Source: Pseudoxanthomonas sp. F37
Lineage (GTDB): Bacteria; Pseudomonadota; Gammaproteobacteria; Xanthomonadales; Xanthomonadaceae
Length of the DNA stretch: 64,000 bases
Assembly: GCF_022965755.1 (NCBI RefSeq)
Contig: NZ_CP095187.1
Coordinates: 992,001-1,056,000, forward strand
Reading direction: 5' to 3'
Shown here: piece after piece, positions 11,122-37,270 of the stretch
Position numbering within the stretch: the stretch's first letter is position 1
Layout: each line of letters begins with the position of its first letter
The notes under the pieces: model-generated
Database searches by the model: none
Told to the model about the DNA's origin: nothing
Seen by the model: the letters and a program-made list of their open reading frames with translations, nothing else
Made by a program: the position numbers and the translations under genes

Positions 11122-11127
11122 AGCCTC

Positions 11128-11239
11128 ACCATCGAGACCGGCAGAGGGACAGGCCCGAAGAAGCCGGGGCAGCCAGCGACGCGCAAGCGCCGTGTAGGTG
11201 CCAAATCCTGCGGGGACCCAGCGTCCGCCGAAAGATGGT
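11128..11239 (+). promoter_or_regulatory. SAM-I (S-box) riboswitch aptamer
   Basis: S-adenosylmethionine-sensing leader ahead of the methionine operon. The conserved S-box core is visible: AGAGGGACAGGCCC, then GAAGAAGCCGGGGCAGCC, and the late element TAGGTGCCAAATCCTGC with GGGG after it. The closing stem P1 pairs ACCATC (11128-11133) with GATGGT (11234-11239), and a GCG/CGC-rich stem (GACGCGCAAGCGCC) forms the P3 region. The class is recognised by its consensus. Genes downstream (metX, metB, hom) make methionine from homoserine, so high SAM should reduce their expression. Confidence 0.9.
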
Positions 11240-11265
11240 TCGTACCGTGCCTTCGCACGGCGAAC
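11238..11265 (+). promoter_or_regulatory. Hairpin just after the SAM riboswitch, candidate expression platform
   Basis: GTTCG (11238-11242) plus CCGTGC (11245-11250) pair with GCACGG (11255-11260) plus CGAAC (11261-11265), with loop CTTC. It shares two bases with the 3' strand of riboswitch stem P1, so the two compete slightly. There is no T-run, so a classical terminator is not supported; control may be on translation or through Rho. Confidence 0.4.
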
Positions 11266-34708: not shown

Positions 34709-35503
34709 ATGGGCCCGCGCCGCATCGTCTGCCTGACCGAAGAGCCGACCGAGACGCTGTACGCGCTGGGCGAGCAGGACCGCATCGTGGGCATCAGCGG
34801 TTTCACCGTGCGTCCACCGCAGGCACGCAGGGAGAAGCCCAAGGTCAGCGCGTTCACCAGCGCGAAGATCGACCAGATCCTGAAGCTGCGCCCCGATCTC
34901 GCCATCGGCTTCTCCGACATCCAGGCCGACATCGCGGCCGAACTGGTGCGGCAGGGCGTGGAGGTCTGGATCAGCAACCACCGCAGCGTGGACGGCATCG
35001 TCGACTACGTGCGGCGGCTGGGCGCGCTGGTGGGCGCGGCCGCCCGCGGCAACGACTATGCCGATGCGCTGCAGCGCGGCCTGGACGACGTTCGCGCGCA
35101 GGCGGCCAGGCTGCCGCGCCGGCCGACGGTCTATTTCGAGGAGTGGGACGAACCGCAGATCACCGGCATCGGCTGGGTGTCGGAGCTGATCGGCATCGCC
35201 GGCGGCGACGACGTGTTTCCCGAGATGGCGCGCGAGCCGCTGGCCAGGCACCGCATCCTCGCCGACGGCAGCGACGTGGTGCGGCGCGCGCCCGACATCA
35301 TCCTGGGCTCGTGGTGCGGCAAGAAGTTCCGCCCCGACCGGGTGGCCGCGCGCGCCGGATGGGAGACGATCCCCGCCGTGCGCGACGGCGAACTGCACGA
35401 GATCAAGTCCCCGCTGATCCTGCAGCCCGGACCGGCGGCGCTGACCGACGGCGTGCGGGCCATCGCGGCGATCATCCGGCGGTGGGCGGGGCGTCACGGG
35501 TGA
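34709..35503 (+). CDS. Helical-backbone periplasmic-binding-protein fold (BtuF-like), no signal peptide
   Basis: A 264-residue protein of the class III binding-protein fold, like BtuF or siderophore binding proteins: RIVCLTEEPTETLYALGEQD (about 4-23), DRIVGISGFTVRPPQAR, DQILKLRPDLAIGFSDIQAD, and VYFEEWDEPQITGIGWVSEL (about 147-166). The N-terminus goes straight into the first strand, and no signal peptide or lipobox is present. It is therefore likely cytosolic, or the annotated start is internal. No ABC permease or ATPase is nearby. Homologues of this kind occur in many proteobacteria with the cobalamin-binding label; the ligand is unknown. Confidence 0.72.
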   Translation: MGPRRIVCLTEEPTETLYALGEQDRIVGISGFTVRPPQARREKPKVSAFTSAKIDQILKLRPDLAIGFSDIQADIAAELVRQGVEVWISNHRSVDGIVDYVRRLGALVGAAARGNDYADALQRGLDDVRAQAARLPRRPTVYFEEWDEPQITGIGWVSELIGIAGGDDVFPEMAREPLARHRILADGSDVVRRAPDIILGSWCGKKFRPDRVAARAGWETIPAVRDGELHEIKSPLILQPGPAALTDGVRAIAAIIRRWAGRHG

Positions 35504-35511
35504 TGCTGGCT

Positions 35512-35648
35512 TCTCTGTGGGAGCGACGTCAGTCGCGACCGTGGAAATGATGTGACCCTATCCCTCCATCGGGCCAGCCTGCCGTGGTAGCCGTGTCCGC
35601 CATCGGACTCCATGGTCGGGAAGGCGTGCGGTCGCGACTGACGTCGCT
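35512..35648. repeat. REP-like palindromic repeat, right arm split by an IS110 element
   Basis: Left arm 35512-35540 reads inward through GAGCGACGTCAGTCGCGACC. Its inverted copy begins at 35630 (GGTCGCGACTGACGTCGCT, to 35648) and then stops where the IS begins. The missing end, CCTACAGAGG, is found at 36788-36797 beyond the IS. Joined, the right arm pairs with the left arm at 27 of 29 positions. Such paired repeats are common between genes in Xanthomonadaceae and Pseudomonas. Confidence 0.8.
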
Positions 35649-35665
35649 TGTGTCTATCGATTGGG

Positions 35666-35671
35666 TAGATT
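35666..35671 (+). promoter_or_regulatory. -10 box of a circle-junction promoter for the bridge RNA
   Basis: TAGATT at 35666-35671 lies 17 bases from the left end. The matching -35, TTGACT, is at the opposite end of the element (36782-36787). Only when the ends are joined in the excised circle do they give TTGACT-N17-TAGATT. In the integrated state the bases at the -35 position come from the repeat and fit poorly. Circle-junction promoters of this kind are known in IS110 elements. Confidence 0.72.
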
Positions 35672-35677
35672 GCGTTG

Positions 35678-35830
35678 TGAGAGCGGAGTGCGGCAGCCCG
35701 ATATGTCGCTGTGCGTTAGCACGTGTAGGAGTCCGGGGCGCCGCACTCCGTACTCCCATCTCAAGCCCGAACAGTTGCACGGATGGCAGTCCGCAGTACA
35801 AGCCAGGGATCGATGGGAGTGCTCTCGCCC
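35678..35830 (+). ncRNA. Bridge RNA of the IS110 element
   Basis: Non-coding guide RNA encoded between the left end and the transposase. Two stem-closed loops are visible. The target loop is closed by CGGAGTGCGGC (35684-35694) with GCCGCACTCCG (35740-35750). It contains GTCGCT (35705-35710), identical to the left target, an internal GTGC/GCAC hairpin, and TGTAGGAG (35724-35731), the complement of the right target CTCCTACA. The donor loop is closed by ACTCCCATC (35752-35760) with GATGGGAGT (35812-35820). It holds ACAGTTG (35771-35777), identical to the element's right end, and ACAAG (35798-35802), complementary to CT plus the left end TGT. Start and end of the transcript are estimates. Confidence 0.82.
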
Positions 35831-35851
35831 CTAGGCTACTACGGAGTGCGC

Positions 35852-36775
35852 ATGAATTCGTACGTCGGCATCGATGTCTCCAAGGACGAACTGGTCGTCC
35901 ATGTCCTGCCCGCCCAGCAGGACCGCGTGTTTCCCAACACCGCTCAGGGTCTAGTCGGACTGGTCGGCTGGCTGCTGGAACTGGAAGGCTGCCGGGTTGC
36001 CTTCGAGGCCAGCGGCGGCTATGAACGCGATCTGTTGGATGGACTGCACCAGGCCGGTGTGGCGGCCGTGCGTTTGCCGGCCCGGCGTCCACGCGATCTG
36101 GCCAGAGCGTTGGGCTTGAAGGCCAAGACCGATGCCCTGGATGCCCGCGTGCTGGCCCTGGCCGCGCAGATGCTGCCGGCCACTACCACGCCCCCTGCGA
36201 CCGCTCCGATGCAGAACCTGCGCGAGTGGTTGCAACTGCGCACGGCCCTGGTGCAGGAGCGCGACAATCATCGCCGACGGATCCAGCAGGTGCGCCAAGC
36301 CTCTGTGCAGACCTTCCTGCGCTCGGTCATCGACAGCCTGCAACAGCGAATTGCCCAGGTCGAGCAGCAACTACGCTGCGCCCTTGAACGCTGTCCCGTC
36401 CAGATCGGCGCCGCGCCGGGACTGGGCCCGATCCTGCGTGCCACCCTGGCCGCCCGCCTGCCGGAACTGGGCCAGCTGGACCGGCGGCAGATCGCCTCCC
36501 TGGTCGGTCTGGCGCCCTACAACCGCGACAGTGGACGCTGGCGTGGTCAGCGCTGCATCGGAGGCGGAAGGGCCGATGTGCGACGCGTGCTCTACATGGC
36601 GACCTGGGCCGCCATCCGGGCACGCTCACCCCTGGCGCAGACCTACCAGCGGCTGGTAGCCGCAGGTAAACCCAAGAAGCTCGCAGTGACCGCCTGCATG
36701 CGCAAGTACCTGACCATGCTCAACGCCATGGCGCGCGATCAAGCGCCATGGGCGCCTGCTACGTCGACGGCCTAG
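35852..36775 (+). CDS. IS110-family transposase (DEDD recombinase)
   Basis: A 307-residue recombinase with an N-terminal RuvC-like DEDD domain: YVGIDVSKDELVVHVL (first Asp near residue 6), VAFEASGGYERDLLDGLHQA (Glu), and KTDALDARVLALAAQML (DxxD). The C-terminal Tnp20 domain has APGLGPILRATLAARLPELG, IASLVGLAPYNRDSGRWRGQ, RCIGGGRADVRRVLYMATWA with the catalytic Ser region nearby. A coiled coil around 160-190 links them. The ATG at 35852 is preferred; the frame is open 23 codons upstream but this covers the bridge RNA. The stop codon lies in the right subterminal repeat. It would catalyse RNA-guided recombination of the IS circle with a target. Confidence 0.93.
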   Translation: MNSYVGIDVSKDELVVHVLPAQQDRVFPNTAQGLVGLVGWLLELEGCRVAFEASGGYERDLLDGLHQAGVAAVRLPARRPRDLARALGLKAKTDALDARVLALAAQMLPATTTPPATAPMQNLREWLQLRTALVQERDNHRRRIQQVRQASVQTFLRSVIDSLQQRIAQVEQQLRCALERCPVQIGAAPGLGPILRATLAARLPELGQLDRRQIASLVGLAPYNRDSGRWRGQRCIGGGRADVRRVLYMATWAAIRARSPLAQTYQRLVAAGKPKKLAVTACMRKYLTMLNAMARDQAPWAPATSTA

Positions 36776-36781
36776 ACACAG

Positions 36782-36787
36782 TTGACT
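36782..36787 (+). promoter_or_regulatory. -35 box at the right end of the IS110 element, used only in the circle
   Basis: TTGACT, ending in the core CT, differs from the consensus TTGACA at one base. In the circular form it sits 17 bases from TAGATT in the left end. In the chromosome it points out of the element into the neighbouring gene's 3' side, where no -10 box was seen. Confidence 0.68.
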
Positions 36788-36808
36788 CCTACAGAGGTCA
36801 TGGACGCC

Positions 36809-37270
36809 TCAGAAATTCCGCTGGAACGTCACCGTCTCCGTGCGACCGCCTGCGGTCACCACCACCTCGAAACGATAGGAGTTGCGCGGCGAGACGCGGG
36901 CGGTACCGATCAGGTCGGTGTAGCCACCGGCGTCGACTTTGCGCAGTTCGATGGTCTGGCGCGTGCCGGAGAGGTCGTGCGCGGTCACGCTGACCTCGCC
37001 GTCGGCATCGATCTCGTCGCTGCCCTTCACCTCGCGCAGGGCGACCAGGACCAGCGCGGTGCCCGCGTCGCGCTGCACGCCGTACTGCTTCGCAACGGCC
37101 TGGCTCAGCGACAGCGAGGGCAGGGCGTTGTAGCGCACGCGCAGTGTGCCGAAGTCGGTTTCGGCAGGTGCCGGCGGCACGAATTCCGCCGTGCGCGGCG
37201 CCTGGCCGCCGGAGCAGGCGGTGAGCAGGGCCGACAGGATGAGGGCGGAGGGGGCAAGGAGGCGCTTCAT
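36809..37270 (-). CDS. DUF4426 lipoprotein
   Basis: A 153-residue lipoprotein: signal sequence with lipobox LLTAC (Cys near residue 19). The mature part matches DUF4426 proteins found next to proC in gammaproteobacteria: ETDFGTLRVRYNALPSLSLS (about 37-56), AVAKQYGVQRDAGTALVLVA, then SVTAHDLSGTRQ, and final strands SYRFEVVVTAGGRTETVTFQ. Function is unknown; an envelope role is likely from its location. It lies 60 bases downstream of proC on the same strand and its stop is only 12 bases beyond the IS110-interrupted repeat, so the insertion did not harm it. Confidence 0.82.
   Translation of the reverse strand: MKRLLAPSALILSALLTACSGGQAPRTAEFVPPAPAETDFGTLRVRYNALPSLSLSQAVAKQYGVQRDAGTALVLVALREVKGSDEIDADGEVSVTAHDLSGTRQTIELRKVDAGGYTDLIGTARVSPRNSYRFEVVVTAGGRTETVTFQRNF

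What the first reader, a model, noticed from the sequence alone, without database searches (positions are those of the whole stretch)
35678..35830. Readable bridge RNA whose target loop matches the site it actually occupies
In the non-coding left end, a loop closed by an 11-bp perfect stem holds GTCGCT, identical to the left flank including the core, and TGTAGGAG, the exact complement of the right flank CTCCTACA. This is the layout of the target-binding loop of IS110 bridge RNAs described for IS621. Six plus eight guide bases all agree with the flanking DNA, which is unlikely by chance. It lets one read the programmed target of this element directly.
Basis: partly seen in the sequence, partly recalled or inferred. 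Interest (0 to 1): 0.88.

Follow-up and report, generated by a model that had tools for sequence, protein, structure and literature searches.

The report
Bridge RNA aimed at REP repeats
A mobile DNA element (IS110 family) carries an RNA whose loop matches the repeated hairpin sequence it sits in, and the match holds in its sister copies and in most relatives examined; this fits a recently discovered RNA-guided insertion mechanism rather than a new one.

Summary
Confirmed. The window holds a complete 1,137-bp IS110-family element (35649-36785) with a CT core at both ends. Its left end can fold into a bridge RNA: a target-binding loop (GTCGCT + TGTAGGAG) and a donor-binding loop. The target guides match the flanks of 4 of 4 copies in the genome, and a sister species has the exact uninterrupted site: a GTAG-tagged REP palindrome. 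Of three REP arm types counted (GTCGC 28, GCCGC 9, GGCGC 126), all 4 copies occupy the minority type that the guide spells. Guides and targets change together among relatives, with U-G wobble tolerated and two poor left-side fits; seven more distant elements keep right-guide/right-target pairing with mostly unrelated sequences. The handshake base, donor pairing and circle-junction promoter described for IS621 are present in sequence. Least familiar, and predicted only, is a helix of the RNA's own ends that would close both loops into a three-way junction where IS621 has a 5' stem-loop. No RNA or recombination was measured.

The parts
35629..35648 (+). Left part of the interrupted REP palindrome (left target) ending in the CT core (35647-35648)
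   Evidence: Near-identical in all 4 copies and in 26 uninterrupted sites
35516..35543 (-). Partner REP in inverted orientation about 86 bp away (REP doublet), with CTCCCACA instead of CTCCTACA
   Evidence: window scan; sequence; doublet also at the orthologous locus L116
35649..36785 (+). IS110-family element, 1,137 bp without core
   Evidence: Boundaries from four copies and the orthologous empty site L116
35649..35656 (+). Left arm TGTGTCTA of a perfect 8-bp subterminal inverted repeat
36773..36780 (+). Right arm TAGACACA of the subterminal inverted repeat
35666..35671 (+). -10-like box TAGATT; 17 bp from TTGACT across the circle junction
36782..36787 (+). TTGA + CT core: -35-like box TTGACT, which meets the -10 box only when right and left ends join in the circle
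   Evidence: 5/6 to TTGACA at the junction, 2/6 (GTCGCT) in the inserted state
35679..35826 (+). Predicted bridge RNA (148 nt); ends predicted, not measured
   Evidence: covariance model R1 finds only the four IS copies in the genome at E <= 1
35679..35684 (+). 5' strand of the predicted closing helix, GAGAGC
   Evidence: 5 of 6 pairs never vary in 19 sequences
35821..35826 (+). 3' strand of the predicted closing helix, GCTCTC
35684..35750 (+). Target-binding loop hairpin
   Evidence: stem 98.0% paired in 19 sequences, 8 of 13 pairs with changes on both sides
35702..35710 (+). [quoted passage not shown]
35724..35731 (+). Right target guide TGTAGGAG (pairs with CTCCTACA)
35732..35733 (+). Handshake guide TC, complementary to GA at the element's right end (36784-36785)
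35752..35820 (+). Donor-binding loop hairpin (outer stem ACTCCCATC / GATGGGAGT)
35771..35777 (+). Left donor guide ACAGTTG, identical to the element's right end (36778-36784)
35798..35802 (+). Right donor guide ACAAG, complementary to CTTGT at the left junction (35647-35651)
35852..36775 (+). IS110 recombinase, 307 aa, DEDD + Transposase_20 domains, D8 E52 D94 D97 S227
36786..36793 (+). Right core CT and right target CCTACA (holds the GTAG tag of the REP on the other strand)

Best explanation
This is an intact IS110-group insertion sequence with an IS621-type bridge RNA in its left end, programmed to insert into one arm of the host's GTAG-tagged REP palindromes. Shown from sequence: element boundaries, CT core, guide/flank complementarity in four copies, the empty site, guide-target co-change across relatives, catalytic residues and predicted fold. 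Inferred from IS621: the element excises as a circle; the circle joins TTGA to CT and so completes a promoter (TTGACT-17 bp-TAGATT); this makes a bridge RNA of about 148 nt; [quoted passage not shown] the DEDD/serine recombinase exchanges strands at CT, helped by the handshake bases. That REPs between genes are harmless landing sites is inference.
For: Pfam DEDD_Tnp_IS110 and Transposase_20 above cut-off. The two solved homologues found are IS621 and ISCro4 (1.5e-20, 2.2e-19), with the D, E, D, D and S aligned. Four copies (three identical, one with 2 differences) in four different contexts, all GTCGCT|IS|CTCCTACA. Empty orthologous site GTCGCGACTGACGTCG-CT-CCTACAGAGG, 93% identity over 600 bp. 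26 uninterrupted GTCGCTCCTACA versus 1 for the reversed control, in REP palindromes. Arm census 28/9/126 with 4 of 4 copies at the 28-site type (8.7e-4 if copies are independent). Right guide matches its own right target at 42 of 54 non-core positions in 9 elements against about 15 when mispaired; 0 of 200,000 permutations reach it. Handshake base pairs with donor position 7 in 9 of 9 there. Fold and covariation. Junction promoter.
Against: No RNA, circle or insertion was observed. Left-guide fit is imperfect in relatives: L041 mismatches at positions 4 and 5, L045/L056 at 3 and 4, L048 at 3 and 8, L044 matches at only 4 of 9, and position 9 is mismatched in the other lineages except L044. G281 shows no preference for the arm type its guide spells (1 of 5, p about 0.24). 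The left donor guide has C against A at donor position 7. The whole-left-end fold does not show the donor hairpin.
Confidence: 0.95

Rival explanations
1. The loop resembles the flanks because REP fragments were captured into the element, and the protein alone recognises the REP hairpin.
For: The target is a palindromic repeat; a RAYT enzyme recognises REP DNA and cleaves at the same GTAG tag (passages of PMC3733652).
Against: The matching bases sit in the two guide positions of an IS621-type loop, one as identity and one as reverse complement. Unrelated right targets (CTTTGC, CTTTTGCA, CTTGTTA, CTCCCCC) in distant elements are matched by their own RNAs in the same place. In this genome GTCGC rather than GGCGC REPs are used, in line with the guide.
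Confidence: 0.03
2. The inverted stem is a terminator or attenuator for the transposase gene and the flank match is coincidence.
For: Strong GC-rich stem upstream of the ORF.
Against: 0 of 6,212 mock sites give such a match. No T-run follows the stem. Stem sequence changes with compensation while the loop follows the target.
Confidence: 0.01
3. The element belongs to the IS1111 group (long subterminal inverted repeats) rather than the IS110 group.
For: Perfect 8-bp subterminal inverted repeat TGTGTCTA/TAGACACA flanking the donor, within the 7-17 bp quoted for IS1111.
Against: The RNA region lies upstream of the gene and the right end is 10 bp; the 17 other lineages tested have only 4-5 bp. The order of the guides (bottom-strand match first) is the one stated for IS110 in PMC11187229 (passages).
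Confidence: 0.04

Closest known systems
IS621 of Escherichia coli and its bridge RNA (PMC11208160: sections 6 and 12 plus passages; PMC11208158: passages)
   Same: IS110-group recombinase with the same catalytic residues, CT core, LTG/RTG/LDG/RDG order, handshake bases, circle-junction promoter, insertion into REP sequences
   Different: Distant protein (E 1.5e-20). Predicted RNA 148 nt instead of 177. If the predicted start is right there is no room for the 33-nt 5' stem-loop, and the RNA's own ends may pair instead; 1-2 nt between target and donor hairpins instead of about 14. Right target guide 8 nt including core instead of 4. 8-bp subterminal inverted repeat.
ISPpu9 / ISPpu10 / ISPa11 of Pseudomonas (PMC1525189, passages; ISPpu9 paper PMC8450116 seen in listing only)
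   Same: IS110-family elements with all listed copies in REP sequences
   Different: Different host and REP family; no guide comparison made here
seekRNA of IS110-type elements such as ISEc21 (PMC11187229, passages)
   Same: RNA from the upstream non-coding region with matches to both target strands in the IS110 order
   Different: Different element; the paper uses another name for the RNA
ISCro4 (PDB 9t56, search result only)
   Same: Second solved homologue by sequence
   Different: Not compared beyond the recombinase alignment

Membership tests
IS110 family (IS110 group) | DEDD RuvC-like domain plus Transposase_20 domain | tested here: met
   PF01548 70.7 bits (cut-off 29), PF02371 56.1 bits (cut-off 21.3)
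IS110 family (IS110 group) | Catalytic D, E, D, D and serine | tested here: met
   D8, E52, D94, D97, S227 line up with D11, E60, D102, D105, S241 of IS621 (alignment, residue names, positions; residue matching done by eye)
IS110 family (IS110 group) | Long non-coding left end, short right end | tested here: met
   203 bp before the ATG, 10 bp after the stop codon
IS110 family (IS110 group) | Site-specific insertion around a short core | tested here: met
   CT core, empty site in L116, four copies
Bridge RNA of the IS621 type | Two internal loops, first complementary to target, second to donor | tested here: met
   donor guides read; predicted fold only, and not seen for the donor loop
Bridge RNA of the IS621 type | Guide and target covary among orthologues | tested here: met
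   strong for the right guide, weaker for the left
Bridge RNA of the IS621 type | Promoter completed at the circle junction | tested here: met
   Sequence only: TTGACT-17-TAGATT; weaker (3 of 6 in the first box) in the seven TTGCT lineages tested
Bridge RNA of the IS621 type | 5' stem-loop before the target-binding loop | tested here: inconclusive
   No room for it if transcription starts about 7 nt after the -10 box; the start was not measured
Bridge RNA of the IS621 type | RNA expressed, bound by the recombinase, reprogrammable | not testable with these tools
   Needs bench work
IS1111 group | Long subterminal inverted repeats with the RNA region downstream of the gene | tested here: not met
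   8-bp repeat present but the RNA region is upstream
GTAG-tagged REP (target site) | 20-40 bp palindrome with GTAG at one end, many copies, often in inverted pairs | tested here: met
   TGTAGGAGCGACGT.. palindrome, 26 exact target copies, nine inverted pairs 49-140 bp apart; definition

The most novel reading that the evidence does not exclude
A clade of REP-targeting IS110 elements in the Xanthomonas family uses a bridge RNA of different overall architecture: no 5' stem-loop; the RNA's two ends pair and lock the target and donor loops into a compact three-way junction with a 1-2 nt linker. Its target guide has followed REP types during evolution (GTCGC, GCCGC, GGCGC and a SMAG-like arm), so that within one genome the element discriminates between REP subfamilies that lie near different RAYT genes.
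Probability: 0.35. Interest if true: 0.6.

Novelty: new member of a known kind. Interest (0 to 1): 0.45.

Why it matters
It is a clean natural test of RNA-guided insertion. One genome offers three counted REP arm types, and the element's four copies use only the minority type its RNA spells. Relatives show guides and REP types changing together, including with wobble. This makes the question 'does an IS110 element follow a host REP family?' directly testable, and offers a possibly more compact RNA layout to compare with IS621.

Tried and rejected
Rfam at gathering thresholds listed only a SAM riboswitch in the window, so it could not decide. The first alignment of left ends (A1) mixed strands because some loci are stored on the other strand; it was discarded and redone. 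RNAalifold on A2 found the target loop, inner donor stems and closing helix but missed the outer donor stem, because MAFFT misaligned its left arm: that stem is 58.9% and 50.0% paired in A3 (helices 5 and 6), yet a stem there folds in 19 of 19 single sequences. Reading the 8-bp subterminal repeat as IS1111 membership was rejected. The idea that the guide tracks the host's commonest REP was not supported: here the commonest counted arm (GGCGC, 126) is not the one targeted, and in G134 5 of 6 copies use the rare arm.

Limits on the closing helix: the 19 sequences were cut at GAGAG and CTCTC before folding, which favours pairing of their ends; 13 of 19 close in register and 6 shifted by two bases; the pairs do not vary; the fold of the whole left end lacks it.

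Rows dropped before counts. In the guide table: L011, L039 and L013-L029 (fragments, or too distant and cut ends), L042 (deleted left end), L047 and L111-L114 (flanks masked N), L038 (same as L010). L040 has no readable right end. L046 needs a one-base shift, made by eye, for its left guide. The G291 row was scored with the guide of L030; one search shows its three copies carry the same guide letters. In one search, of 13 distant loci, L138, L142, L145, L146, L148 and L151 were left out (no right end or no recombinase match found), leaving 7 plus this element and one G277 copy; I set the right-guide register by eye on the AG before the handshake base, so the two core positions were excluded from the count; L139 and L144 have the same right guide and target. 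The arm census counted only G-N-CGCTCCTAC with N = T, C or G; ACGC- and CCCGC-type arms and occupied sites were not counted.

Full report
The observation. The element around it is complete. Its boundaries are fixed by four copies in the genome, all reading GTCG-CT | element | CT-CCTACA in four different contexts (three identical, one with 2 differences), and by an orthologous locus without it. In genome G253 (L116), 600 bases of the joined flanks align at 93% identity straight through GTCGCGACTGACGTCG-CT-CCTACAGAGG. Of the 19 related loci examined (out of 37 other genomes of the genus searched), 8 align across the whole join at 75-93%. The element is therefore 35649-36785 with a CT core at each end. 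The flanking open reading frames (34709-35503 on + and 36809-37270 on -) converge on it.

Host. Named relatives of the recombinase are Xanthomonas, Stenotrophomonas and other Lysobacteraceae, so I take the host to be of that family; the genus was not determined.

Chance. Taking every CT in the window as a mock target (6,212 on both strands), the left end contained the mock 6-base guide in 222 cases and the mock 8-base guide in 53, but never both in the right order and spacing. The true pair is present.

The protein. The 307-aa product matches both Pfam domains of IS110 recombinases. Its only solved relatives at E <= 0.001 are IS621 and ISCro4. The catalytic residues named for IS621 (passages) line up with D8, E52, D94, D97 and S227.

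The target. GTCGCTCCTACA occurs 26 times uninterrupted against 1 for the reversed word, including nine inverted pairs 49-140 bp apart. The 26 contexts share CGGTCGCGACT-N-(A/G)-(C/T)-GTCGCTCCTACA with few exceptions, a palindrome tagged GTAG at one end. This fits the GTAG REP superfamily of PMC3733652 (abstract and passages). The window's site was one half of an inverted REP doublet. The genome also has two Y1 transposase (RAYT-like) genes; L135 has one GTCGC-type REP (with CCCAC) nearby, and L136 lies among GGCGC- and CCCGC-type REPs.

Use of REP types within the genome. Three arm types followed by CTCCTAC were counted: GTCGC 28, GCCGC 9, GGCGC 126. If insertion ignored the arm and copies were independent, 4 of 4 at GTCGC would have probability 8.7e-4. 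In G134, whose guide also has U at position 5, 5 of 6 copies sit at GTCGC although 10 of 262 counted free sites are of that type. Against this, G281 with the same left guide shows no preference (1 of 5), and L010 and L032 sit at GCCGC, consistent with a U-G wobble.

Guide and target change together. The table has 20 groups of copies; all copies of a group carry the same guide letters (checked for the nine multi-copy groups; one L050-group row there is a false anchor, its letters are). Guides with C at position 5 sit at GCCGC: 28 of 28 copies in the L030, L050, L034, L036, L037 and G291 groups, and the single copies L040, L043 and L048. In the Xanthomonas-type genomes GCCGC is by far the commonest counted arm, so this part is weak evidence. 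Guides with G (L045, L056) sit at GGCGC. L041 and L044 fit badly on the left side. G277 uses a different palindrome (..GTGGAT-CT-ACTG): three non-core right-guide bases next to the core pair in the copy scored, and seven left-guide bases match after a one-base shift made by eye. A covariance model built from 19 left ends found the four copies and nothing else in the own genome at E <= 1, and matches in 12 of 368 other genomes of the class (13 loci). Seven of these 13 loci had a readable right end. Over nine elements, right guides matched their own right targets at 42 of 54 non-core positions (about 15 when mispaired); 0 of 200,000 permutations reached this. The base after the guide paired with donor position 7 in 9 of 9, as described for the handshake guide of IS621 (passages).

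The RNA. At the joined ends a promoter TTGACT-17-TAGATT appears; in the inserted state the first box is GTCGCT. The Xanthomonas-type relatives keep TTGACT; the seven TTGCT lineages have 3 of 6 matches in that box. Transcription would start near 35678, just before GAGAGC. From there to GCTCTC (148 nt) the strand folds into two hairpins with internal loops, enclosed by a helix of its own ends. The same overall shape appears in the minimum-energy fold of 19 of 19 lineages, 13 with the closing helix in register and 6 shifted by two bases. The sequences were cut at those ends, which favours this, and the fold of the whole left end shows neither the closing helix nor the donor hairpin. The target-loop stem is 98.0% paired with changes on both sides at 8 of 13 pairs; over the whole structure 46 cells have two-sided changes against 18.3 in shuffles (0 of 500 reach it), while the count of further pair types is reached by 20 of 500 shuffles. 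The closing helix is all but invariant, so covariation in the family neither supports nor opposes it. Outside the family the picture is open. The letters GAGAGC/GCTCTC are not at the ends of the 12 outside matches. In an alignment fitted to the model the end helix is 84.5% paired with two-sided changes at 6 of 6 pairs, but such an alignment leans towards the model. Unconstrained folds of nine of these loci with 40 nt of upstream DNA gave, by a crude count, a local 5' hairpin in 7 and end-to-end pairs in 4, some with both; L143 has a strong 5' hairpin like the 5' stem-loop of IS621. In IS621 the two loops are joined by a flexible linker and a synaptic complex uses loops from two RNAs (passages); here the predicted hairpins are 1-2 nt apart.

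What is known. IS110 elements insert into REPs (PMC1525189, passages; PMC11208160, passages), and bridge RNAs with these guides are described (PMC11208160 sections 6 and 12, and passages; PMC11208158 passages; PMC11187229 passages). A search for 'bridge RNA' with 'three-way junction' and 'IS110' found no paper in the held library, and the listings showed no title or abstract start describing this element. Figures are not held, so the six bridge RNA drawings in PMC11208160 could not be compared, and most subscription papers are missing. The element is a new member of a known kind; only the closed three-way layout might be a variant.

Noticed in passing
11126-11241 (+): SAM riboswitch (RF00162), 69.2 bits.
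   Followed up: no
56097 (-): A REP of the GGCGC arm type (ATGGGGCGCTCCTACA), the commonest of the three counted in this genome; it carries no IS.
   Followed up: partly
L135 (G000:C1:436395) and L136 (G000:C1:960897): Two Y1_Tnp (RAYT-like) genes; one near a single GTCGC-type REP, the other among arrays of GGCGC- and CCCGC-type REPs about 92 bp apart.
   Followed up: partly
L046, L057, L109, L110 (G277): A related IS110 element sits in 4 of 4 examined copies next to a palindrome ATCCACGCATGGCGTGGATCT that looks like the SMAG repeats of Stenotrophomonas (resemblance recalled), with correspondingly different guides.
   Followed up: partly
L050, L087-L091 (G006): Six copies whose left guide reads GCCGT-G at the core still sit at GCCGCT; loss of exact core pairing on the left seems tolerated.
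   Followed up: no
L047, L111-L114 (G231): IS110 copies with masked or duplicated flanks (tandem copies or an assembly matter).
   Followed up: no
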